Shown piece after piece: positions 2 to 34,770 of a stretch of 64,000 nt of DNA (the first letter of the stretch is position 1; each line of letters begins with the position of its first letter). Both the position numbers and the translations under genes were made by a program. The stretch is taken from contig NZ_CP063144.1 in the NCBI RefSeq assembly GCF_014962245.1, positions 300,582-364,581 of the forward strand, read 5' to 3'. The notes beneath the pieces were generated by a model. That model saw nothing but the letters and a program-made list of their open reading frames with translations, was not told the origin of the DNA and made no database searches. Source of the stretch: Thermosphaera aggregans. Its GTDB lineage: Archaea; Thermoproteota; Thermoprotei_A; Sulfolobales; Desulfurococcaceae.

Positions 2-325
2 GAGGTCTACCTGGTTAAGAAGAACAGTAGGGTTGACAACACTGTTCTCAGAAACAGCGTGGGGGACAGGCTTGACAAGATGTTTTCAAGAGAGGTTAGA
101 GGATTCTACGACTACATAGTATTCTACAGTGATGAATCCCTCTACGACAAGGTAGCCGGGGCTGTAGCGAGCTCTAACCTGCCTGTAACCATGATCGCCA
201 CTTACCCGGGACAGAACATTGTCTCCGCCGCATACGACCTATCCCTGAGCACTCTCAGCGAGTTCCTGGCTTTTCATGAAAGGCTTGTCAAGGAGCTAAC
301 CGTCCCCAGGGCTGTAAGGAAGTAG
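2..325 (+). CDS. C-terminal part of an unrecognised protein
   Basis: The reading frame is open from base 2 and ends at TAA-free codons up to TAG at 323-325, so the gene starts before the window. An internal GTG at 59 could be mistaken for the start, but the frame continues upstream of it. The visible part is about 107 residues, mixed alpha/beta in character, with no motif that I recognise. The next gene has its own TATA-like box (about 337-346), so this gene probably ends a separate transcript. Function unknown. Confidence 0.6.
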   Translation, partial: EVYLVKKNSRVDNTVLRNSVGDRLDKMFSREVRGFYDYIVFYSDESLYDKVAGAVASSNLPVTMIATYPGQNIVSAAYDLSLSTLSEFLAFHERLVKELTVPRAVRK

Positions 326-395
326 CTTCCCCACTGCTTTAAATATCCAGTCTCCAATAAAGTATTCATGTGGCTTCCTCGAGGAGTGTTGACTC

Positions 396-1355
396 ATGAA
401 GGCAGTATATATGTTTGAACCCCCTAGGAACGGCCTCGAAATCCTTGAAAAAGAAGGCATCCCCTACTCATACTACCCTGGGAGGCAGGCGCCCCCGGAG
501 TGGCTTGAGAAGGAGCTGAGGGATGCAGTAGTCCTGGTGGCAGCCCCGTGGAACACTGTGCCCAGGGACTTGATCGAGAAGGCTGAGATGCTGAGGCTGA
601 TCATGGTTCAGGGCTCAGGGCTCGACAAGGTTGACATAGAGGCTGCCACGCAGCGAGGGGTATGCGTAGCCAACGCCCCGGACTACATAGCGGAGACTGT
701 TGCAGACCATATCATGGCTCTAATACTTGCACACTACAGGAACATTGTCAGAGGCGACAGGTATGTTAGAGAAGGGAAGTGGACTGCCGGGACCCCTCAG
801 ACACTGATTGGGAGAACGCTGAGCGGTAAGCAGGTTGGAATAGTGGGGATGGGGAGGATAGGGGCCTCGCTGGCCAGGAGGCTCAAGCCCTTCGGGGCGA
901 GAATAGTCTACTGGGATAGGAGGGCTAAGCCCGAGATAGAGCACGCGCTCGAGGCTCAGAGAATGGATCTAGACCAGCTTGTCGAGACCAGCGACGTGGT
1001 GGCAATAACCGTTGCGCTGACCCCTGAGACAAGGAGGCTGATAAACAGGGACAGGGTATTCAGGATGAAGAAAGGAGCCCTGCTTGTCAACACTGCGAGA
1101 GGGCCTATAGTTGATGAGAAAGCTCTTGCGGAAAGGCTTGCTCAGGGAGAGATCTACGCGGCCCTCGACGTCTTCGAGACGGAGCCCCTCCCGCAGGACA
1201 GCCCGCTGCCTAGGCTTGAAAACACCGTACTAACCCCTCACCTTGGAGGATTCTCCTGGGAGGCCTTGGCGGAGACGGCGAGGTTTGTTGCCGAATCAGT
1301 TGCCGGGTTCATCAAGCAGGGCAGGCTTCCTGACACTGTTGTGAACAAGTGCTGA
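396..1355 (+). CDS. D-2-hydroxyacid dehydrogenase (phosphoglycerate dehydrogenase-like)
   Basis: NAD-dependent oxidoreductase of the D-isomer-specific 2-hydroxyacid dehydrogenase family. The Rossmann dinucleotide site reads VGIVGMGRIG (about residues 149-158). The catalytic triad is visible as Arg in NTARGP, Glu in ETEPLP and His in TPHLGG. At 319 residues it has the short form without an ACT regulatory domain, so glyoxylate/hydroxypyruvate or 3-phosphoglycerate are all possible substrates and I do not choose between them. The start ATG at 396 follows a GAGGAG ribosome site near 381 and a TTTAAATAT box near 338-346, which suggests its own promoter. Confidence 0.88.
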   Translation: MKAVYMFEPPRNGLEILEKEGIPYSYYPGRQAPPEWLEKELRDAVVLVAAPWNTVPRDLIEKAEMLRLIMVQGSGLDKVDIEAATQRGVCVANAPDYIAETVADHIMALILAHYRNIVRGDRYVREGKWTAGTPQTLIGRTLSGKQVGIVGMGRIGASLARRLKPFGARIVYWDRRAKPEIEHALEAQRMDLDQLVETSDVVAITVALTPETRRLINRDRVFRMKKGALLVNTARGPIVDEKALAERLAQGEIYAALDVFETEPLPQDSPLPRLENTVLTPHLGGFSWEALAETARFVAESVAGFIKQGRLPDTVVNKC

Positions 1356-1447
1356 TCAAGCTGGCCCGGGAAAACTTTCACCCTCCCCCGAGCCCTCCGT
1401 GTTTTTAAATTTTTACACGTTGAACTCTTTCAAGCATTTCCTCAAGA

Positions 1448-1864
1448 ATGGTGTCAGGCGTGAAGGCTGTGTCCGGCCTGGTTGCAACAGCTCTGCTGCT
1501 CGCGTTAACGATCGCTGGGGGAGTCCTACTCTACAACTACGTCTACGGCTACCTAGCCGGGGGCGGTAGTAGCGGAGGGGTTGAAGCAGTGTACGTAGCC
1601 CTCTACGACTATGGCTCTGTGAAAGAGCTGTACGCGGAGGTTTTGAACACCGGGTTGAAGACTGTCAGGGTTGAGAAGGTTGTTCTCATTCAGAACGGGA
1701 AACCCATTAACGAAACAAATATCAGTGGAGTCAGCATTCCAGCTGGCGGTAAGGTAGCCATAGTAGTTAGCAACATAACCGCTAACATAAATGCTTCACA
1801 ACCCCTCTACCTTAGAATATACTACGACGGGCAGCCGTCGAAGCTGTTCGAAGTATTCAAGTAG
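1448..1864 (+). CDS. Type IV pilin-like protein
   Basis: Secreted filament subunit candidate of 138 residues. The N-terminus has a short polar lead (MVSGVKAVSG) followed by a long hydrophobic stretch (LVATALLLALTIAGG), the pattern of archaeal class III signal peptides cut by a PibD-type peptidase. The rest is a Thr/Asn/Val-rich beta domain of the kind seen in archaeal pilins. It lies directly upstream of a secretion ATPase and a TadC-like membrane protein on the same strand, and this context is the main reason for calling it a pilin. The peptidase is not in the window. An adhesion pilus is more likely than an archaellum, because no other archaellum genes are nearby. Confidence 0.75.
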   Translation: MVSGVKAVSGLVATALLLALTIAGGVLLYNYVYGYLAGGGSSGGVEAVYVALYDYGSVKELYAEVLNTGLKTVRVEKVVLIQNGKPINETNISGVSIPAGGKVAIVVSNITANINASQPLYLRIYYDGQPSKLFEVFK

Positions 1865-1882
1865 CCTCGCAGCGGGGCAGGC

Positions 1883-3355
1883 TTGCACATGCTTCAAAGG
1901 TTTTTTCAAAACCTTAAAACCATCCTTCCAACCTCCTTCCCCACCCCAGCGGGAAAAGGAGGGCTTGCAGACGCTTCCCTCAGGGTTGTGAAGAGGATTG
2001 TAGAGGAGTATTTAACAGGCTACTCTCTCGAGGAGGGTGTTGAAGGCTTAATCCTGGAGGAGTACGAGCTCCCCTTCAACATTAAGGCAAGGATTGTCAG
2101 GAACGGTGGCTTGCTGAAGTATGTTGTCGAGGAGCCGCCTATAACCCCTGCTGTTATTGAACAAGTATCCAGGCTAGTGCTCAGCGTTGAAGCAGGCTTC
2201 AAGGATGCAGGGCTTCCCGGAGCGGAGGTGGTTTACAACTACTCGAAGATCGCCAGCGGCTACGGCCCCTTATACCCTTTCACAATGGATGAGAGCGTTG
2301 AGGAGGTCAGCTTAGACAGGAAGACCGGGAGGATCCACGTCATCCACTCCAAGTACAGCTGGTACGGGTGGCTCCCCTCCAACATCACCGTGAGCAGCAG
2401 CCTCGTCGACAAGCTGGTCCTCTCTCTCGCGAGGAGATCGGGGAGGCATATATCCCTGCACAACCCAATAGCGGAGGGTTTGACAAGGGAGGGTTTAAGG
2501 GTTAGCCTAACCTTCGGCGACGAGGTCTCGAGGAGCGGTAGTAGCATAGTGGTTAGGAGGAGGCCCGGAGCCCCTGTAACCATCACCAGGCTGATAGCGG
2601 AGGGTGTTTTAAACACGGCTGTTGCAGCATACCTCTGGCTCATCCTCGAGTCGAAGGGCTGGGTGATCGTGGCTGGGAGTGTTGGAGCCGGGAAGACAAC
2701 CCTCCTCCAGGCACTGCTAACCCTCGTACCTCCTTCAAGAAGGGTTGTCACCATCGAGGACACCCCGGAGCTGAGCGGTTCTACAGGCCTCTGGGACCCG
2801 CTTGTTGAGAGGCATTTAGCCGGTAAGCAGGGAGCCAGCATAACCTCCTACGACCTGTTAAGGTTCGCGCTCAGGAGGAGGCCTGACTACATAGTTGTCG
2901 GCGAGGTGAGAGGGGTTGAAGCCAGGTTGCTCGTCCAGGCATCCAGGCTCGGCCATGGAGTGTTAACAACCATTCACGCCGACAACCCGAGGTCTGTCGT
3001 GGAGAGGCTGACAGCACCCCCTATATCCATACCGCGTAGCCTTCTCAGGAATATTTCAGCAATAGTGATGGTTTCCAACAACCAGGGGGTTAGAAGGGTT
3101 TCAGCCTTGTGCGAGCTCGGGGAGGGATCGGAGATCCGTGAGCTCTGCTCTACACCAGGGTCCTGCGGGTCTTTAACACCCAGGGTTTTAGCACACCTAT
3201 CCGAGAGGCTTCAGGGATACGGCGATAAGGAGAGGGTTCTACGGGTGCTTGAGGAGAAGGCTTCCTTCCTGGAGGATTGTGTCTCCAAGCAGGTTTTCCA
3301 CCACTCAAAGCTATCCGAGAAGCTCCTGGAGCACTATCTCGCGTGGAAGGCTTGA
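1883..3355 (+). CDS. Type II/IV secretion system ATPase (TadA/GspE family), pilus assembly
   Basis: Cytoplasmic hexameric ATPase that would power pilus assembly. The N-terminal part (about residues 30-240) is the usual Tad/VirB11-like domain. Walker A reads GSVGAGKTTLL (about residue 266), followed by the Asp box EDTPEL, a Walker B-like DYIVVGEVRG and the His box HGVLTTIHADNP. The listed start is TTG 1883; ATG 1889 two codons later is equally possible. The C-terminus contains several Cys residues (CELG, ELCSTPGSCG), which is not standard for the family. It overlaps the reading frame of the TadC-like gene downstream. Confidence 0.9.
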   Translation: MHMLQRFFQNLKTILPTSFPTPAGKGGLADASLRVVKRIVEEYLTGYSLEEGVEGLILEEYELPFNIKARIVRNGGLLKYVVEEPPITPAVIEQVSRLVLSVEAGFKDAGLPGAEVVYNYSKIASGYGPLYPFTMDESVEEVSLDRKTGRIHVIHSKYSWYGWLPSNITVSSSLVDKLVLSLARRSGRHISLHNPIAEGLTREGLRVSLTFGDEVSRSGSSIVVRRRPGAPVTITRLIAEGVLNTAVAAYLWLILESKGWVIVAGSVGAGKTTLLQALLTLVPPSRRVVTIEDTPELSGSTGLWDPLVERHLAGKQGASITSYDLLRFALRRRPDYIVVGEVRGVEARLLVQASRLGHGVLTTIHADNPRSVVERLTAPPISIPRSLLRNISAIVMVSNNQGVRRVSALCELGEGSEIRELCSTPGSCGSLTPRVLAHLSERLQGYGDKERVLRVLEEKASFLEDCVSKQVFHHSKLSEKLLEHYLAWKA

Positions 3356-3369
3356 GGAGGGCGTGGTGT

Positions 3370-4632
3370 TTGGAGAAGTCGCTGAGCAGGATCAGTGCTA
3401 GAGGCTTGGAGGAGGGCTTTCTCGACTTCCTGACAACACTGGCCTCCTTCGAGTCCACGGGCCTCAGGATCATGGACTTGTTCGAGCACTCGGCTAGTAG
3501 AAGAATCCGCGTCCCAGGAGACTACGCATCCCTTGCCAGGCTCTACGTGTTCCTGGAGAAGGCTTCGGGAGACCCTTACACCTCGCTCAGAAGCCTCGCC
3601 GAGCTCACTCCTTCCCCAACAGTGTCAAGGCTTCTCAGGGAGTACGGGGAGGTTTTAGTGTCAACAGGGGGGACCATGAGCCTTGTAGAGAAGTATCTTA
3701 GCGAGGAGCTGGAGAAGCACTGGGCAAGGGTTTCAAGCCTTTTCACACATATCGATGCTTTCTACGAAGGCTTCCTCATAATCGTCCTAACCCTTACAGT
3801 TTTCACGCTTCTCCCAGGGGTTTCCCTGAACCCTGCAGTATCTGTTGCCGCAACCGTCTTCACAAGCGTTGCAGGATACTTGATTGCTAGAAGGGTTTCC
3901 GAAACCATCCTATCCCCTGAACCGCCATACATGGCTGCGGCCGACCTTGCAGTGGTAGCAACAGCCCTCCTCGCCCTCACAGGGCTTCAAGGCCTCGTGC
4001 TTCACACTGCTCTCGCCTTAACACTCCACGCTTTCTTGAGGGAGAGGGTTAGGGCTTCCCAAGGAGTTGAGGCTGAGGCCGTCCTCCTAGCCGAGGAGGC
4101 TGTTTCAGGCCTCGCCCTAGGGGTCCCGGTTGACGCATCCCTTACAGCGGGCTTCTACTCGTCGAGAAACCTGGTTCACAAGCTCCTTGGGATTGCAATG
4201 CTGAACGGGTTCAACGCTTCAACCATGGCTGACACACTGCCCCTCCCGCCGCTGGCTAGGAGGCTCATAACCCTGCTGTCAACCCCTCTGGAGTACAGCG
4301 GGTTCCCGAGGGCGCTTGCCTCCACCGTCTCCAGGTTTTCAAGACACATTGCCCAGTCGAGGAAGTGGTGTGGGGAGAGGTCGAGGCTCTACCTGTTCTA
4401 CGCGGTTTTCACAGGGCTCCTCCTATCCTTCATGGCCTACATGCTGAAAGGGTTCACGGGCCCGCCATGCCAGCCGCCCGGTGCCGTGGCGCCGCTGGTA
4501 TACTCGAGCATTGTGGGGTCGGTGGCCGTTGCCTCAGCCTCAGGCGGGGGTTTAATGGTTTCATCCGTGAAGAAAACAGGATTGGCTTTAACCCTGGGCT
4601 GGCTTGCCTACTTATCCCTGACTATCCTTTAA
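3370..4632 (+). CDS. TadC/GspF-like pilus platform membrane protein
   Basis: Integral membrane protein expected to anchor the pilus ATPase. It has two cytoplasmic helical regions, each followed by a group of hydrophobic segments (for example FLIIVLTLTVFTLLPGVSL and a C-terminal pair ending in LAYLSLTIL), as in archaeal TadC/FlaJ proteins. The frame is open from TTG 3277, but that would overlap the ATPase by 79 bases. I prefer TTG 3370, which has a GAGGAGG ribosome site at 3354-3360; TTG 3352, overlapping the ATPase stop, is another option. The 3' end overlaps the convergent rtcB by 11 bases. Confidence 0.8.
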   Translation: MEKSLSRISARGLEEGFLDFLTTLASFESTGLRIMDLFEHSASRRIRVPGDYASLARLYVFLEKASGDPYTSLRSLAELTPSPTVSRLLREYGEVLVSTGGTMSLVEKYLSEELEKHWARVSSLFTHIDAFYEGFLIIVLTLTVFTLLPGVSLNPAVSVAATVFTSVAGYLIARRVSETILSPEPPYMAAADLAVVATALLALTGLQGLVLHTALALTLHAFLRERVRASQGVEAEAVLLAEEAVSGLALGVPVDASLTAGFYSSRNLVHKLLGIAMLNGFNASTMADTLPLPPLARRLITLLSTPLEYSGFPRALASTVSRFSRHIAQSRKWCGERSRLYLFYAVFTGLLLSFMAYMLKGFTGPPCQPPGAVAPLVYSSIVGSVAVASASGGGLMVSSVKKTGLALTLGWLAYLSLTIL

Positions 4633-6085
4633 CAACTCCTATTGGGCGCATCCTTACAACCATTCTAGCAATCCCTACCTTGTGCGCTGTCAACACCACC
4701 TTGTCCACGTCCTTGTAGGCTCCGGGGGCTTCCTCACTGATCACTCTTTTAGTCGCAGCCCTCAGCACAACACCCTTCCTCGCAAGCTCCTCGGTTATTT
4801 TCTCAGGGCTGTAGGATCTTATCGCCTCACCCCTGCTCAGCCACCTGCCCGCTCCGTGCGGGGCGCTGAACCATGTCCTCGCCCCCTGGGCTGTCCCAAC
4901 CAGTATGTAGCTGGCCGTGCCCATGCTACCAGGTATTAATACGGGCTGGCCTATGCTCCTGTAGTCCGCGGGTATGTCGGGGTGTCCCGGCGGGAAGGCC
5001 CTCGTGGCCCCCTTCCTGTGGACTACAACCCTGTACTTCTCCCCGTTGACCACGTGCTCCTCCTTCTTAGCTATATTGTGGGCTACGTCGTATATTATTT
5101 CGAGACCCAGCTCCTCCGGGGGCTTCTTGAAAACCTGCTTGAAGCTCTCCCTAACCCAGTGGGTTATGATCTGCCTGTTAGTCCAGGCGAAGTTCGCGGC
5201 CGCGGCCATAGCTTTGAAGTAGTCCTGGCCCTCGGGCGAGTTGAAGGGTACTGCGGCAAGCTCCCTGTCAGGGACCTGTATCCCGTACTTCCTCATAGCC
5301 CTCTCCATGGTTACCAGGTAGTCGCTCGCAACCTGGTGGCCCAGCCCCCTGCTCCCGGTGTGGATCATGAGGGTTACCTGCCCCACCCGGGTTATACCCA
5401 GGGTTTTAGCAGCCTCGGGGTCGTAGATCTCGTCAACCACCTGTATTTCGAGGAAGTGGTTTCCAGCTCCGAGTGTTCCAAGCTGCTCATGCCCCCTCTG
5501 CTTAGCAACCCTGCTGACCTTGCTCGCGTCGGCATCCCTCATGCTCCCTCTTTCCTCAATATGCTCCATATCCCTTTCCCATCCGAACCCGTGCTCCACC
5601 GCCCATTTAACACCGTGGTTTAAAACCTCGTCCAGGTCGCTCACGCTAAGCCTTAAATGCCCTGTTGAGCCAACACCGCTTGGCACGTTCCTGAACAACG
5701 CCTCCACAATCTCTTTAAGCCTCGGCCTCACATCCTCCTCATCCATCTCAGTCCTCAACACCCTGACCCCGCAGTTTATATCGTAGCCTACTCCACCAGG
5801 GCTTATCACACCCTCCTCCATGTCGAACCCCGCCACGCCGCCTATTGGGAACCCGTAGCCCTGGTGCCCGTCAGGCATCACGTAAGACTTCAGCCTGATC
5901 CCGGGGAGGCATGCCACGTTAGCAGCCTGCTCCAGGGTTAAATCCTCATGCATCTTCTTAATCAAGTACTCGTCAGCGAACACCAAGGCATCGGTGAGCA
6001 TGCACGGCTTAGCTCCTCTAGGGATAACCCATTCATAATCCCCTATCTTCTCAACTCTAACACTAACCATAGGAAACGCCTCCAC
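4622..6085 (-). CDS. rtcB: RtcB tRNA-splicing RNA ligase
   Basis: GTP-dependent, Mn2+-requiring ligase that joins 2',3'-cyclic phosphate and 5'-OH ends, as in exon ligation of archaeal tRNAs after endonuclease cleavage. At 487 residues it has full length. Diagnostic parts are visible: the metal site Cys in YDINCGVRV, LGAGNHFLEIQ, MIHTGSRGLGHQV, and the guanylylated-His region GSMGTASYI...APHGAGRW near residues 385-410. No intein is present. The start may be ATG 6085 or 6070. A perfect inverted repeat lies between the TATA box and the start (see 6091-6108). The window contains two intron-bearing transcripts that could be substrates. Confidence 0.95.
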   Translation of the reverse strand: MEAFPMVSVRVEKIGDYEWVIPRGAKPCMLTDALVFADEYLIKKMHEDLTLEQAANVACLPGIRLKSYVMPDGHQGYGFPIGGVAGFDMEEGVISPGGVGYDINCGVRVLRTEMDEEDVRPRLKEIVEALFRNVPSGVGSTGHLRLSVSDLDEVLNHGVKWAVEHGFGWERDMEHIEERGSMRDADASKVSRVAKQRGHEQLGTLGAGNHFLEIQVVDEIYDPEAAKTLGITRVGQVTLMIHTGSRGLGHQVASDYLVTMERAMRKYGIQVPDRELAAVPFNSPEGQDYFKAMAAAANFAWTNRQIITHWVRESFKQVFKKPPEELGLEIIYDVAHNIAKKEEHVVNGEKYRVVVHRKGATRAFPPGHPDIPADYRSIGQPVLIPGSMGTASYILVGTAQGARTWFSAPHGAGRWLSRGEAIRSYSPEKITEELARKGVVLRAATKRVISEEAPGAYKDVDKVVLTAHKVGIARMVVRMRPIGVVKG

Positions 6086-6090
6086 GCGTG

Positions 6091-6108
6091 AATCCTAATC
6101 ATAGGATT
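6091..6108. promoter_or_regulatory. Inverted repeat at the rtcB transcription start
   Basis: AATCCTA and TAGGATT form a perfect 7-bp inverted repeat around ATCA. A TATA box (TTTATAA on the minus strand, 6121-6127) lies about 25 bases upstream, so the repeat covers the expected transcription start of rtcB. This is a typical place for a repressor operator. The regulator is unknown. Confidence 0.5.
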
Positions 6109-6159
6109 AACTACACCGGCTTATAAACAAAGACACCCAAGCCCCCACCGCCCTTGCCC

Positions 6160-6290
6160 CGCAGAAACCGTCCGGAAAATCGACCGCGAGAAGGGCTCCC
6201 GCCATGGACTAGAACCCCCCGGTTCCAGCAGGGCGTCGCGGACGGCTTGTCAACGGGGAGCCCTGGTTTTCCGGAAAACCCGTAGAAAAC
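6160..6290. ncRNA. Hairpin-rich non-coding region, candidate structured RNA
   Basis: Nested complementary segments are visible: TCCGGAAAA (6171-6179) with TTTTCCGGA (6267-6275); AGGGCTCCC (6192-6200) with GGGAGCCCT (6256-6264); CCGTCCG (6168-6174) with CGGACGG (6239-6245); and a small hairpin GAACC-CCCC-GGTTC (6212-6225). The 16-base palindrome at 6265-6280 overlaps the first stem. The first two stems and the hairpin can coexist as one folded unit of about 100 bases. No convincing protein is encoded here. Strand and function are unknown; it does not match SRP RNA or RNase P RNA by eye. Confidence 0.35.
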
Positions 6291-6322
6291 CCCATAACCC
6301 CACTCAATCAAAACAATGACCA

Positions 6323-6464
6323 GAAGCAATCAAAAAAGACTGAAAGGATCGTATCTTCAATATTCTATTAATATGAGAATTGAAGCAATCATAAGAGACT
6401 GAAAGATCTGTCTTGTTGATTAGCGTGTCCCATCTTCTTCGAAGCCATAAAAATAGATTGAAAG
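6323..6464 (+). CRISPR. Relic CRISPR-like array, three repeats and two spacers
   Basis: Three related 24-base repeats lie at 6323-6346, 6382-6405 and 6441-6464, separated by two unrelated segments of exactly 35 bases, so the period is 59 both times. Repeats 1 and 2 begin GAAGCAATCA and end GACTGAAAG; repeat 3 begins GAAGCCATAA and ends GATTGAAAG. The 24-base length, the 35-base spacers and the GAAAG end are usual for crenarchaeal CRISPR arrays. The repeats have diverged from each other and no cas gene is in the window, so this is most likely an inactive remnant. Confidence 0.6.
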
Positions 6465-6493
6465 ATAAATACTTCCTCTACCTCCAGTAATTA

Positions 6494-7786
6494 TTGGGCG
6501 GGTTGTCCGTGCAGAGGAAGGATTTACTCTTAATCATAGTGGTCTTAGTTATAGTGAGTGTTATTACACCCGTGCTGATCTTAACCATGGGTTTCACGCC
6601 CAGTGGAAGTGCTGGTGGTTCCCCATCAACAACGACTAGTACACCCTACACTGAGACCGAGACTGGGACAGTGACCATCAGTCCCGTGAACGAGGATGGC
6701 TTTGGTATTGTTTATGCGTATGTTGAAAATGTGGATTGGTATGAGTATAATTGGATTGAGTATAATTGGATCTTTGCGATGGTGATTGAAAACAAGTATA
6801 AGGATGTTGAAATTGAGAGTGTAACTGTGAACGGGAAACAACCTTTCTCCGTATCTTTCAATGGAACCAATATGGATGTATTTGTGATACCTGCTGGTTC
6901 AAAGATAGGTGTGGTAATTAAAGCTTTGATAATGAATGTTACAGAGGGAGATCATGTTAATGTTGTGTTTCATTTTGCTGATGGAAGAAAATATGAGAAA
7001 ACTTTTCCACTAATATCTGGATACTTTGAAACAACAGGATTGGTTGAACCCATGTTTGAAGTGAGAGTGGAAGATGTTAAACTCGTTGAAGATCCCTCGT
7101 GGAATTATCTCAGATATACTTTCACTGTGGAGAATAAAGGAGTTGTTCCTCTCGTTATAACAAAATTTGCCAGTCCTGAAATGTGGTTCATTTCTATATC
7201 ACGTAAAACAGACCCCAATGGCTTGATATGGGAGAGTTGTAGCCTCTCAGATGAGACGAGACCATGGAGTCCAATAGTTATTCTCCCAGGAGAATCAACA
7301 CGCATCGCTCTCAATCTTTCATCATCCAACTTGTTTGAAACTACCGTTGTGAAATTTATGATAAATGACAATATGTATGAAACCTTTGTCCCCAATCCAG
7401 AGGCTCGGTTCACAAAAACCACGAAGCCTTTAGTTAAATTATACAACTACTTTGTTGAAAAAACAGAAGATGGATGGAATATCACTCTTATCGTAGCCAA
7501 TATTGCGGATAGTTACATGCCTTTAAACTTTATCCGAGTTGAAGTGTGGAATGATAACAACACTTTGAAGTATGTGGGAGCAATATGGGTTGATCAATCA
7601 ACGATAAGAAGGAGTGGAGATATAACCGTGTCACCGTTTCCAACACGTCCAGGAGAATATGCAATAGTGGAGTTGAAACTTGGAAATGAGTTCCTTCCTG
7701 GCGATCATGTCAAATTTAAATTTGGGAGTATAAGTTATAACAGTGGAGACGTCACCATAATCTTTGAATACGAAATAACCCTCTAA
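6494..7786 (+). CDS. Unrecognised membrane-anchored surface protein
   Basis: A 430-residue protein with one N-terminal membrane segment (about residues 11-33, LLLIIVVLVIVSVITPVLIL) followed by a Ser/Thr-rich linker and three beta-rich regions (roughly 50-165, 175-300 and 310-430). The regions contain repeated phrases about polar strands and potential N-glycosylation sites (FNGTN, LNLSSS, WNITL), so the bulk is probably outside the cell. The base composition is visibly richer in A+T than that of the neighbours. It sits between two sets of CRISPR-like repeat relics. Starts TTG 6494, TTG 6503 and GTG 6509 are all possible. Function unknown; it may be a pilin-like or S-layer-associated protein. 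Confidence 0.75.
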   Translation: MGGLSVQRKDLLLIIVVLVIVSVITPVLILTMGFTPSGSAGGSPSTTTSTPYTETETGTVTISPVNEDGFGIVYAYVENVDWYEYNWIEYNWIFAMVIENKYKDVEIESVTVNGKQPFSVSFNGTNMDVFVIPAGSKIGVVIKALIMNVTEGDHVNVVFHFADGRKYEKTFPLISGYFETTGLVEPMFEVRVEDVKLVEDPSWNYLRYTFTVENKGVVPLVITKFASPEMWFISISRKTDPNGLIWESCSLSDETRPWSPIVILPGESTRIALNLSSSNLFETTVVKFMINDNMYETFVPNPEARFTKTTKPLVKLYNYFVEKTEDGWNITLIVANIADSYMPLNFIRVEVWNDNNTLKYVGAIWVDQSTIRRSGDITVSPFPTRPGEYAIVELKLGNEFLPGDHVKFKFGSISYNSGDVTIIFEYEITL

Positions 7787-8158: not shown

Positions 8159-8182
8159 CTTATTAGTAATTAGGGATTGGAA

Positions 8183-9526
8183 ATGCTTGTTGCACACTTT
8201 GCTGATACTCATCTTGGGAAAACTCTTTACAACATCTCTGAGACCATGAGGCAGTTTATCGATCACTTTGAGCAGGCTGTTGAGCAAGCGCTTAAAGAGC
8301 ATGTTGACGCGTTTATTTTCGCTGGAGACTTCTTTGATGATAAACACCACCTTCCTAACAGGGTTTTGAAAAGGGCTATAGACATTGTTGGCAGGATAAC
8401 TAGTGAGGGTAAACCAGTCTTCATTGTTCCAGGCGATCACGACAGGTGGCCGCAAAGAGATGACTCACCAATAGAGCTTCTCAGGCTCTTCAGCAACGTG
8501 TACACGCCGGGGAAGGAGATATTCTTCGCTGAGAAGGCTTTGAAGGATGGGAGGGAGTATGTTTTCGCAGGGCTCAACTACTTCAACGTCAAAAATAGTG
8601 AACAGAGTAGGCAAGCCCTGTACAAGTACATTCAGGGAATGGATAGGGCCTTGGGCAAGTACGACGTGCTGATAATGCATCAAAACATTGAAAACTACTT
8701 CCCACTGGAGAAAGGTCTCAGTATAAGCAACATCCCTGTAACACCAAGGTATGTTGCAATGGGCCATCTCCACCGGAGAATAATCGAGAAGAGAGTTATC
8801 GATGGCAGGAGCCAGGTGATAGCGTACCCGGGGAGCATAGATATTTTCGACATTGACGAGGTTGAGGAAGCCAGGAGGAATGGTAAGGGATTCTACATAG
8901 TTGACCTCACCCCTGAGGAGCCTGTCGTGCACACGGTTAAAGTGGAGGCAACGCCTTTCGAATACGTGGAGACAGGCGTGGCTGAGTCGGAGTGGAAGCC
9001 TAAGATAGCTGAAGCATTGGCAAGGCTTGCGAAGCAGGTTAACCCGGGTAACAAGGGAATACTGTACGTCAAGATATTCGTGAAGGCAGGGGATATGGTA
9101 AGCCTCGAGAGGATAGAAGGCTTCATAGTCGATGAGAAGAAGAGGAGGCTCCAAGGCGGGCTGGAACTCATATTCCACAAGTTCGTGAGGGAACTCGTGA
9201 AGGAAACCTTTGAGAAAGCAAGCAGGATAACACAGCAAGCAAGAGGAGAGCTCGACACGCTCGCGGACTTCCTGGCCAGGGAGCTAGGGATCTCCCCTGA
9301 TGAGGCTAAAAAACTAGCAGAGCATGTGGAAGGCTTGAAAGAAGCCTTCAAGCAGGGTGATGAGGAAGCGGTGGAGCAGATTATAGAGGAATTGGCTAGG
9401 GCAACCTTCTGGAGCAGGATCGGGATACCGGATGAATACGTTAAACTAGAGGAGGCAAAGCCCGGTAGGGTAAGCGAGCCCAGTGCTCACAAACCATCCA
9501 GGATCACGGACTACTTTAAAAGGTGA
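8183..9526 (+). CDS. mre11: DNA double-strand break repair nuclease Mre11
   Basis: Manganese-dependent nuclease of the Mre11-Rad50 complex, which trims and tethers DNA ends. The phosphoesterase motifs are all present: FADTHLGK near the N-terminus, FAGDFFDDKHH, VPGDHDRW, IMHQN and MGHLHRR. The last third is charged and helical and probably binds the Rad50 coiled-coil base. It is the first gene of the mre11-rad50-nurA-herA operon and overlaps rad50 by four bases (GTGA). TTG 8177 is an alternative start two codons upstream. Confidence 0.95.
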   Translation: MLVAHFADTHLGKTLYNISETMRQFIDHFEQAVEQALKEHVDAFIFAGDFFDDKHHLPNRVLKRAIDIVGRITSEGKPVFIVPGDHDRWPQRDDSPIELLRLFSNVYTPGKEIFFAEKALKDGREYVFAGLNYFNVKNSEQSRQALYKYIQGMDRALGKYDVLIMHQNIENYFPLEKGLSISNIPVTPRYVAMGHLHRRIIEKRVIDGRSQVIAYPGSIDIFDIDEVEEARRNGKGFYIVDLTPEEPVVHTVKVEATPFEYVETGVAESEWKPKIAEALARLAKQVNPGNKGILYVKIFVKAGDMVSLERIEGFIVDEKKRRLQGGLELIFHKFVRELVKETFEKASRITQQARGELDTLADFLARELGISPDEAKKLAEHVEGLKEAFKQGDEEAVEQIIEELARATFWSRIGIPDEYVKLEEAKPGRVSEPSAHKPSRITDYFKR

Positions 9527-34640: not shown

Positions 34641-34664
34641 CTTTTAGTCTTTTCTAATTGCTTC
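34641..34664 (-). repeat. Solitary copy of the CRISPR-like repeat
   Basis: On the minus strand this segment begins GAAGCAATTAGAAAAGACT and ends AAAAG. It agrees with repeat 1 of the array at 6323-6464 in 21 of 24 positions. No second copy is found at a 59-base distance. It lies just upstream of the truncated transglutaminase-like frame. Confidence 0.5.
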
Positions 34665-34770
34665 TACTTGTTGTTCTGTCGCTGTGGGTTTAAGAGCTTC
34701 GCTATGGGTTTTCCCGAAAAACCGAGGTTTCCGCTAATAGCATGGTTTAGGGGGAACCCTAATGCATCCG

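What the first reader, a model, noticed from the sequence alone, without database searches (positions are those of the whole stretch)
6323..6464. Relic CRISPR-like array with an exact 59-base period
Three 24-base repeats with diverged sequence (GAAGC...GAAAG) and two unrelated 35-base spacers keep a perfect spacing of 59. Length and 3' end match crenarchaeal CRISPR repeats, but the repeats differ from each other at several positions and no cas genes are nearby. It looks like an old array dying by point mutation while its spacing is kept.
Basis: partly seen in the sequence, partly recalled or inferred. Interest (0 to 1): 0.7.

Follow-up and report, generated by a model that had tools for sequence, protein, structure and literature searches.

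The report
Fossil CRISPR array without cas genes
This is a decayed three-repeat CRISPR memory array in a hot-spring archaeon that has lost its Cas proteins; it sits between the same two genes that flank a complete CRISPR-Cas system in a close relative, so it is a clear but otherwise ordinary fossil of a lost immune system.

Summary
In detail: three 24-nt repeats at exact 59-nt spacing (6323-6464), far above shuffled sequence. The CRISPR reading is supported. The same genome carries a regular 7-repeat array (repeat GAAGCAATAAGAAAAGACTGAAAG, six unrelated 35-37-nt spacers) 15 kb away. Both arrays share a homologous ~150-bp leader, and so do three further relic loci with one repeat or less; one of these lies in the window at 34641-34664 (-). 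That exact repeat heads an array next to a type I-D cas1-cas2-cas3-csc1-csc2 operon in another archaeal MAG. Repeat 1 of the window array is letter-for-letter the repeat of a 43-copy set in another relative. Repeats 1, 2 and 3 differ from it by 0, 2 and 4 bases, so decay grows away from the leader. The complete genome has no detectable Cas1, Cas6, Cas7 (DevR or Csc2) or RAMP protein. In Thermosphaera aggregans the interval between rtcB and mre11, where the relic sits, holds a full type I-A CRISPR-Cas locus, but with a different repeat and leader. No spacer target was found. Best verdict: an orphan, degenerating CRISPR array with its leader, one of five graded remnants of a lost CRISPR-Cas system. 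This is a new instance of a known kind.

The parts
6174..6322 (+). CRISPR leader, homologous to the leader of the 7-repeat array
   Evidence: blastn 75.6% over 176 bp including repeat 1 (E 1e-18 to 4e-18); local alignment above all 300 shuffles against arr7, s289, s335 and the type I-D array leader L084
6288..6299 (+). Position of the TATA-like box of the leader, here AACCCCATAACC instead of AACCTTAAAAAC in the intact array; probably an eroded promoter
   Evidence: leader alignment; promoter role inferred
6323..6346 (+). CRISPR repeat 1 (leader-proximal), intact: identical to the repeat of 43 copies in genome G027
6347..6381 (+). spacer 1, 35 nt, no target found
6382..6405 (+). CRISPR repeat 2, two substitutions from repeat 1
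6406..6440 (+). spacer 2, 35 nt, no target found
6441..6464 (+). CRISPR repeat 3 (leader-distal), four substitutions from repeat 1
34641..34664 (-). solo CRISPR repeat GAAGCAATTAGAAAAGACTAAAAG of the same family
34665..34720 (-). leader remnant of the solo repeat (75% to the window leader plus repeat over 81 bp)
4622..6085 (-). flanking gene rtcB (tRNA-splicing ligase); same neighbour of the CRISPR-Cas locus in T. aggregans
   Evidence: PF01139 4e-181, synteny
8177..9526 (+). flanking gene mre11; same neighbour on the other side of the CRISPR-Cas locus in T. aggregans
   Evidence: NF041031 7e-40, synteny
6494..7786 (+). unassigned 430-aa ORF in the rtcB-mre11 interval, no match to Pfam, NCBIfam or PADLOC; not cas-like

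Best explanation
A genuine CRISPR array with its leader that has been orphaned by loss of the host's cas genes and is decaying. When intact it would have been transcribed from the leader on the + strand, cut by Cas6 within each repeat to give crRNAs starting with the last 8 nt of the repeat (ACTGAAAG / ATTGAAAG), and used by a Cas effector against the elements matching the spacers. That chain is inferred from family knowledge. Shown here: the repeat-spacer anatomy, the leader homology, the membership of the repeat in a family that sits next to cas1-cas2-cas3-csc1-csc2 (type I-D) in one genome and next to cas6-csa3 in another, the absence of the tested cas genes from this genome, and the position between rtcB and mre11 where a congener has a full CRISPR-Cas locus. 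Without Cas1-Cas2 no fresh repeats can be added at the leader end, and without Cas6 and an effector nothing selects for repeat sequence. The repeats therefore mutate in place, worst at the old leader-distal end. Four other loci in the genome are at other stages: seven identical repeats, one repeat, one repeat, and a truncated repeat. The single-repeat loci may be arrays collapsed by recombination between direct repeats (inferred).
For: Repeats and spacing. A 7-repeat sister array with unique 35-37-nt spacers. Shared leader. Identical repeat beside a type I-D cas operon in L084 and beside cas6-csa3 in G040. Repeat 1 identical to the G027 repeats. Decay 0, 2, 4 from leader to distal end. A comparable gradient of 0, 1, 1, 4 in a short array of G040, and the degenerate last copies of the 88-repeat T. 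aggregans array. No Cas1, RAMP, DevR, Cas6 or Csc2 in the genome, while the same searches find them in relatives or control genomes. T. aggregans has cas6-cas3''-cas3'-cas8a-cas5a-cas7a-cas4-cas1-csa1 plus about 88 repeats between rtcB and mre11. No recognisable cas debris in the interval.
Against: No spacer matches a virus, plasmid or relative above chance, so memory content is not demonstrated. The congener's locus at the same site has a different repeat (GAAACAATAGAGAAAAATTGAAAG) and a leader that is not similar above shuffles. Descent from that very locus is therefore not shown; the site may have been occupied by two different CRISPR systems in turn. Cas3, Cas8, Cas10 and class 2 effectors were not searched for genome-wide. 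No RNA data.
Confidence: 0.93

Rival explanations
1. The array is a small but living member of a CRISPR system whose Cas proteins act in trans, supplied by an undetected, divergent or extrachromosomal cas operon.
For: Repeat 1 and the leader-proximal region are intact; the sister array has seven perfectly identical repeats, as expected of a recently active system.
Against: The genome is one contig at 99.86% completeness and has no Cas1, Cas6, Cas7 (two kinds) or RAMP. Repeats 2 and 3 of the window array are degenerate and its TATA-like box is eroded.
Confidence: 0.05
2. The repeats are a non-CRISPR dispersed element (a leader-plus-repeat unit that spreads by itself), and the tandem at 6323 is incidental.
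For: Leader plus a single repeat occurs at several unrelated places in this genome and in G011.
Against: The same repeat forms regular arrays with unique spacers, one directly downstream of cas1; that is the definition of CRISPR. Several leader-bearing arrays per genome are normal in crenarchaea (PMC4390879).
Confidence: 0.015
3. Chance or coding tandem repeat.
For: A-rich repeats can arise in lysine-rich coding sequence; two of the 15 genome-wide hits (C1:101233 and window 7948) are probably such cases, the first inside a 130-aa ORF and both without a leader.
Against: Score 61 against a shuffle maximum of 43; a period of 59 is not a multiple of 3; no ORF of 80 aa or more covers 6323-6464; leader homology.
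Confidence: 0.005

Closest known systems
Cas-less CRISPR3/4 loci of Escherichia coli (type I-F remnants; PMC2886076)
   Same: Short arrays that occur in cas-lacking strains at a chromosomal position where related strains carry cas genes; leaders can persist in degraded systems; the terminal repeat is degenerate.
   Different: E. coli orphan arrays carry anti-cas spacers that target the missing system; none of the eight spacers here points to a cas gene of relatives. Here the congener's system at the site is of another repeat family.
Type I-D CRISPR-Cas locus of the uncultured Sulfolobales MAG CALIBI010000058.1 (L084)
   Same: Repeat identical to that of the 7-repeat array of this genome; leader similar to the window leader above all shuffles.
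   Different: Has cas1, cas2, cas3, csc1, csc2 and at least 17 repeats; spacers are about 50 nt instead of 35-37.
Type I-A CRISPR-Cas locus of Thermosphaera aggregans (rtcB-mre11 interval; genome of 1,316,595 bp, PMC3035292)
   Same: Same chromosomal position, 24-nt repeat ending in TTGAAAG/CTGAAAG.
   Different: Complete operon and about 88 near-perfect repeats; repeat differs at 6 of 24 positions; leader not similar above shuffles.
Isolated/orphan CRISPRs without cas genes (surveyed in PMC5294841)
   Same: Array without cas genes in the neighbourhood.
   Different: Here the tested cas genes are absent from the whole genome and several remnants with a common leader coexist.

Membership tests
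CRISPR array | Direct repeats of 23-50 bp separated by unique spacers of similar length | tested here: met
   3 x 24 nt, 2 x 35 nt unrelated spacers
CRISPR array | Leader on one side | tested here: met
   About 150 bp homologous to the leaders of sister loci
CRISPR array | Repeat belongs to a family associated with cas genes | tested here: met
   Same repeat family beside cas1-cas2-cas3-csc1-csc2 in L084 and beside cas6-csa3 in G040
CRISPR array | Spacers match mobile elements | tested here: inconclusive
   No match above chance in phage, plasmid or relatives' genomes; exact 20-mers of the two window spacers absent from IMG/VR; crenarchaeal viruses are poorly sampled
Intact (living) CRISPR array | Near-identical repeats | tested here: not met
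   Repeats 2 and 3 carry 2 and 4 substitutions; this is what makes it a relic rather than a living array
Functional CRISPR-Cas system | cas adaptation and effector genes in the genome | tested here: not met
   No Cas1, Cas6, DevR/Cas7, Csc2/Cas7d or RAMP match in a 99.86% complete genome
Functional CRISPR-Cas system | Transcription and processing into crRNAs | not testable with these tools
   No RNA data
Type I-A locus of T. aggregans (descent from it) | Same repeat and leader family at the syntenic site | tested here: not met
   Same site but repeat 75% identical and leader not above shuffles

The most novel reading that the evidence does not exclude
Leader-plus-repeat units persist and multiply in cas-less archaea (this genome and G011, both lacking the tested cas genes) because they do something other than classical immunity. 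They could be regulatory RNAs, or ready landing sites that re-adopt incoming Cas1-Cas2 systems. On that reading the five leader loci would be retained elements rather than mere debris.
Probability: 0.06. Interest if true: 0.7.

Novelty: new member of a known kind. Interest (0 to 1): 0.3.

Why it matters
It is a clear example of how an adaptive immune system disappears from an archaeal chromosome. One genome holds five leader-bearing remnants at different stages (7, 3, 1, 1 and a partial repeat) and no detectable cas genes, with a congener that still has a CRISPR-Cas system at the very site. It gives a handle on the order of loss (cas genes first, then repeats from the distal end, with the leader lasting longest). 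It also shows that array finders that demand near-identical repeats would miss the later stages.

Tried and rejected
Rfam: no gathering-level match in the window and only chance-level matches over 6050-6600. The two spacers plus six sister spacers against phages, plasmids and 61 related genomes gave only chance-level hits. Exact 20-mers of both window spacers and the repeat pattern found nothing in IMG/VR. Anti-cas spacers as in E. coli were tested against the cas loci of relatives: mismatches no lower than for shuffled spacers, apart from one spacer at 11 against a shuffle minimum of 12, in a non-cas stretch. tblastn of 17 Cas proteins against the rtcB-mre11 interval found no debris. The repeat-like sequences at C1:101233, window 7948 and C1:715380 were rejected as chance: no leader, and the first lies inside an ORF. 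A PADLOC scan of 46 ORFs around both arrays lists no Cas family among the 25 commonest of 222; ten flanking proteins scanned individually gave no Cas match.

Full report
What is there. Three 24-nt direct repeats lie at 6323-6346, 6382-6405 and 6441-6464 with two unrelated 35-nt spacers, exactly as described. The best equally spaced triple of 24-mers in the window is this one, with a pairwise match score of 61 of 72; sixty dinucleotide shuffles of the whole window reached at most 43. No ORF of 80 aa or more covers it.

Same genome. The window is part of a single 1,305,106-bp contig (completeness 99.86%). A search with the repeat pattern found a regular array of seven identical repeats, GAAGCAATAAGAAAAGACTGAAAG, at C1:291515-291902 on the other strand, 15 kb from the window array. 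Its spacers are 37, 37, 37, 35, 37 and 37 nt and all different. The ~150 bp upstream of repeat 1 in the window is homologous to the ~150 bp upstream of that array (75.6% over 176 bp with the repeat, E about 1e-18), so both have the same leader. Three more loci have this leader. One is a solo repeat in the window at 34641-34664 (-). One is a solo repeat at C1:107188-107211 (-). One is a leader copy at C1:289013 with a repeat truncated after 15 nt (GAAGCGATCAGAAAA). Against dinucleotide-shuffled leaders the window leader matches those of the 7-repeat array, C1:289013 and window 34641 above all 300 shuffles.

Other genomes. The repeat family occurs in long arrays in related genera. G027 has 43 copies of GAAGCAATCAAAAAAGACTGAAAG, identical to window repeat 1. 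G040 has 26 copies of the 7-repeat-array variant next to a cas6 and a csa3 gene. The named MAG contig CALIBI010000058.1 (L084) has csc2, csc1, cas3', cas2 and cas1 of type I-D, and 17 or more copies of the same repeat starting 82 bp after cas1. The repeat family is therefore CRISPR by direct association with cas1.

State of the system. Whole-genome searches found no Cas1 (PF01867), RAMP (PF03787), Cas7/DevR (PF01905), Cas6 (PF10040 and the G040 Cas6 protein) or Csc2 in this genome. The same searches find Cas1, Cas7 and the G040-type Cas6 in both congeners. Taking the G027/G011 sequence as ancestral, window repeats 1, 2 and 3 carry 0, 2 and 4 substitutions, worsening away from the leader. That is the direction expected if the leader-distal repeat is oldest; degenerate terminal repeats are described for E. 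coli (PMC2886076), and they are seen here in the T. aggregans array and in a short array of G040 (0, 1, 1, 4). At the position of the TATA-like box of the other leaders (AACCTTAAAAAC in the 7-repeat array) the window has AACCCCATAACC, which suggests that transcription has been lost as well (inferred). The exact period is not remarkable: two equal spacers and no indels.

Synteny. One congener, by its genome size of 1,316,595 bp Thermosphaera aggregans (PMC3035292), is collinear with the window from 2 to 6129 and again from 8184 onwards. Between those points, that is between rtcB and mre11, it carries 17.7 kb with cas6, cas3'', cas3', cas8a, cas5a, cas7a, cas4, cas1, csa1 (type I-A) and about 88 repeats; the window has 2.05 kb with the relic array and one unassigned ORF. 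No cas debris is recognisable in the window interval. The T. aggregans repeat (GAAACAATAGAGAAAAATTGAAAG) differs at 6 of 24 positions, and its leader is not similar to the window leader above shuffles. The shared site is certain; descent of the relic from that particular locus is not shown. Either the two systems occupied the same site in turn or one diverged far from the other.

Mechanism (inferred from established CRISPR biology). While cas genes were present the leader would have promoted transcription and received new spacers, Cas6 would have cut each repeat 8 nt from its 3' end, and an effector would have used the crRNAs. After loss of cas, repeats are neither renewed nor selected. Recombination between direct repeats can shrink arrays to a single repeat, a plausible origin for the solo loci; repeat-mediated deletions are described for Sulfolobales arrays (PMC4390879). 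That the sister array has zero differences in 168 bp, against six in 72 bp here, suggests that the window array stopped being renewed earlier than its sister, but the normal degeneracy of terminal repeats weakens that inference.

Targets. No spacer of either array matches phages, plasmids or 61 related genomes beyond chance; in IMG/VR only the two window spacers were sought, as exact 20-mers, with no match. None points to a cas gene of relatives. The memory content stays unknown.

Verdict. It is a relic, orphan CRISPR array and one of five graded remnants in a genome with no detectable cas genes. Orphan and degenerate arrays are well known (PMC2886076, PMC5294841, PMC6737040), so the find is a new member of a known kind with a clear context.

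Noticed in passing
window 34641-34720 (-): Solo CRISPR repeat of the same family with leader remnant, a second relic inside the window.
   Followed up: yes
L009 7014-7149 (genome C1:289013-289148): Leader copy 89-90% identical to the window leader over about 90 bp, followed by a repeat truncated after 15 nt.
   Followed up: partly
L061 9054-9119, L062 8984-9007, L063 5648 and ~16680, L064 8261 (genome G011): At least five dispersed leader-plus-one-or-two-repeat loci in another genome lacking the tested cas genes; the C1 and C6 copies share 188 bp at 94.7%, apparently including a tRNA 3' end, so the unit has been duplicated.
   Followed up: partly
L053 11066-12954, L056 414-1869, L057 55-1913, L084 6764-7973: Arrays with this repeat have unusually long, variable spacers (mostly about 47-56 nt) while the same repeat in the window's genome has 35-37-nt spacers.
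   Followed up: no
L054 7896-7967 and L058 3965-4036: A conserved inverted pair of repeat-like sequences 48 bp apart in two genomes (G040, G060), outside any array.
   Followed up: no
genomes G027, G040, G011, G000: Genomes at 97-100% completeness with this repeat family all lack detectable Cas1; in G027 and G040 arrays end at or near contig edges, so missing cas operons may be an assembly effect there.
   Followed up: partly
window 6494-7786 (+): 430-aa secreted or membrane-anchored-looking ORF with no family match starting 30 bp after the last repeat.
   Followed up: partly
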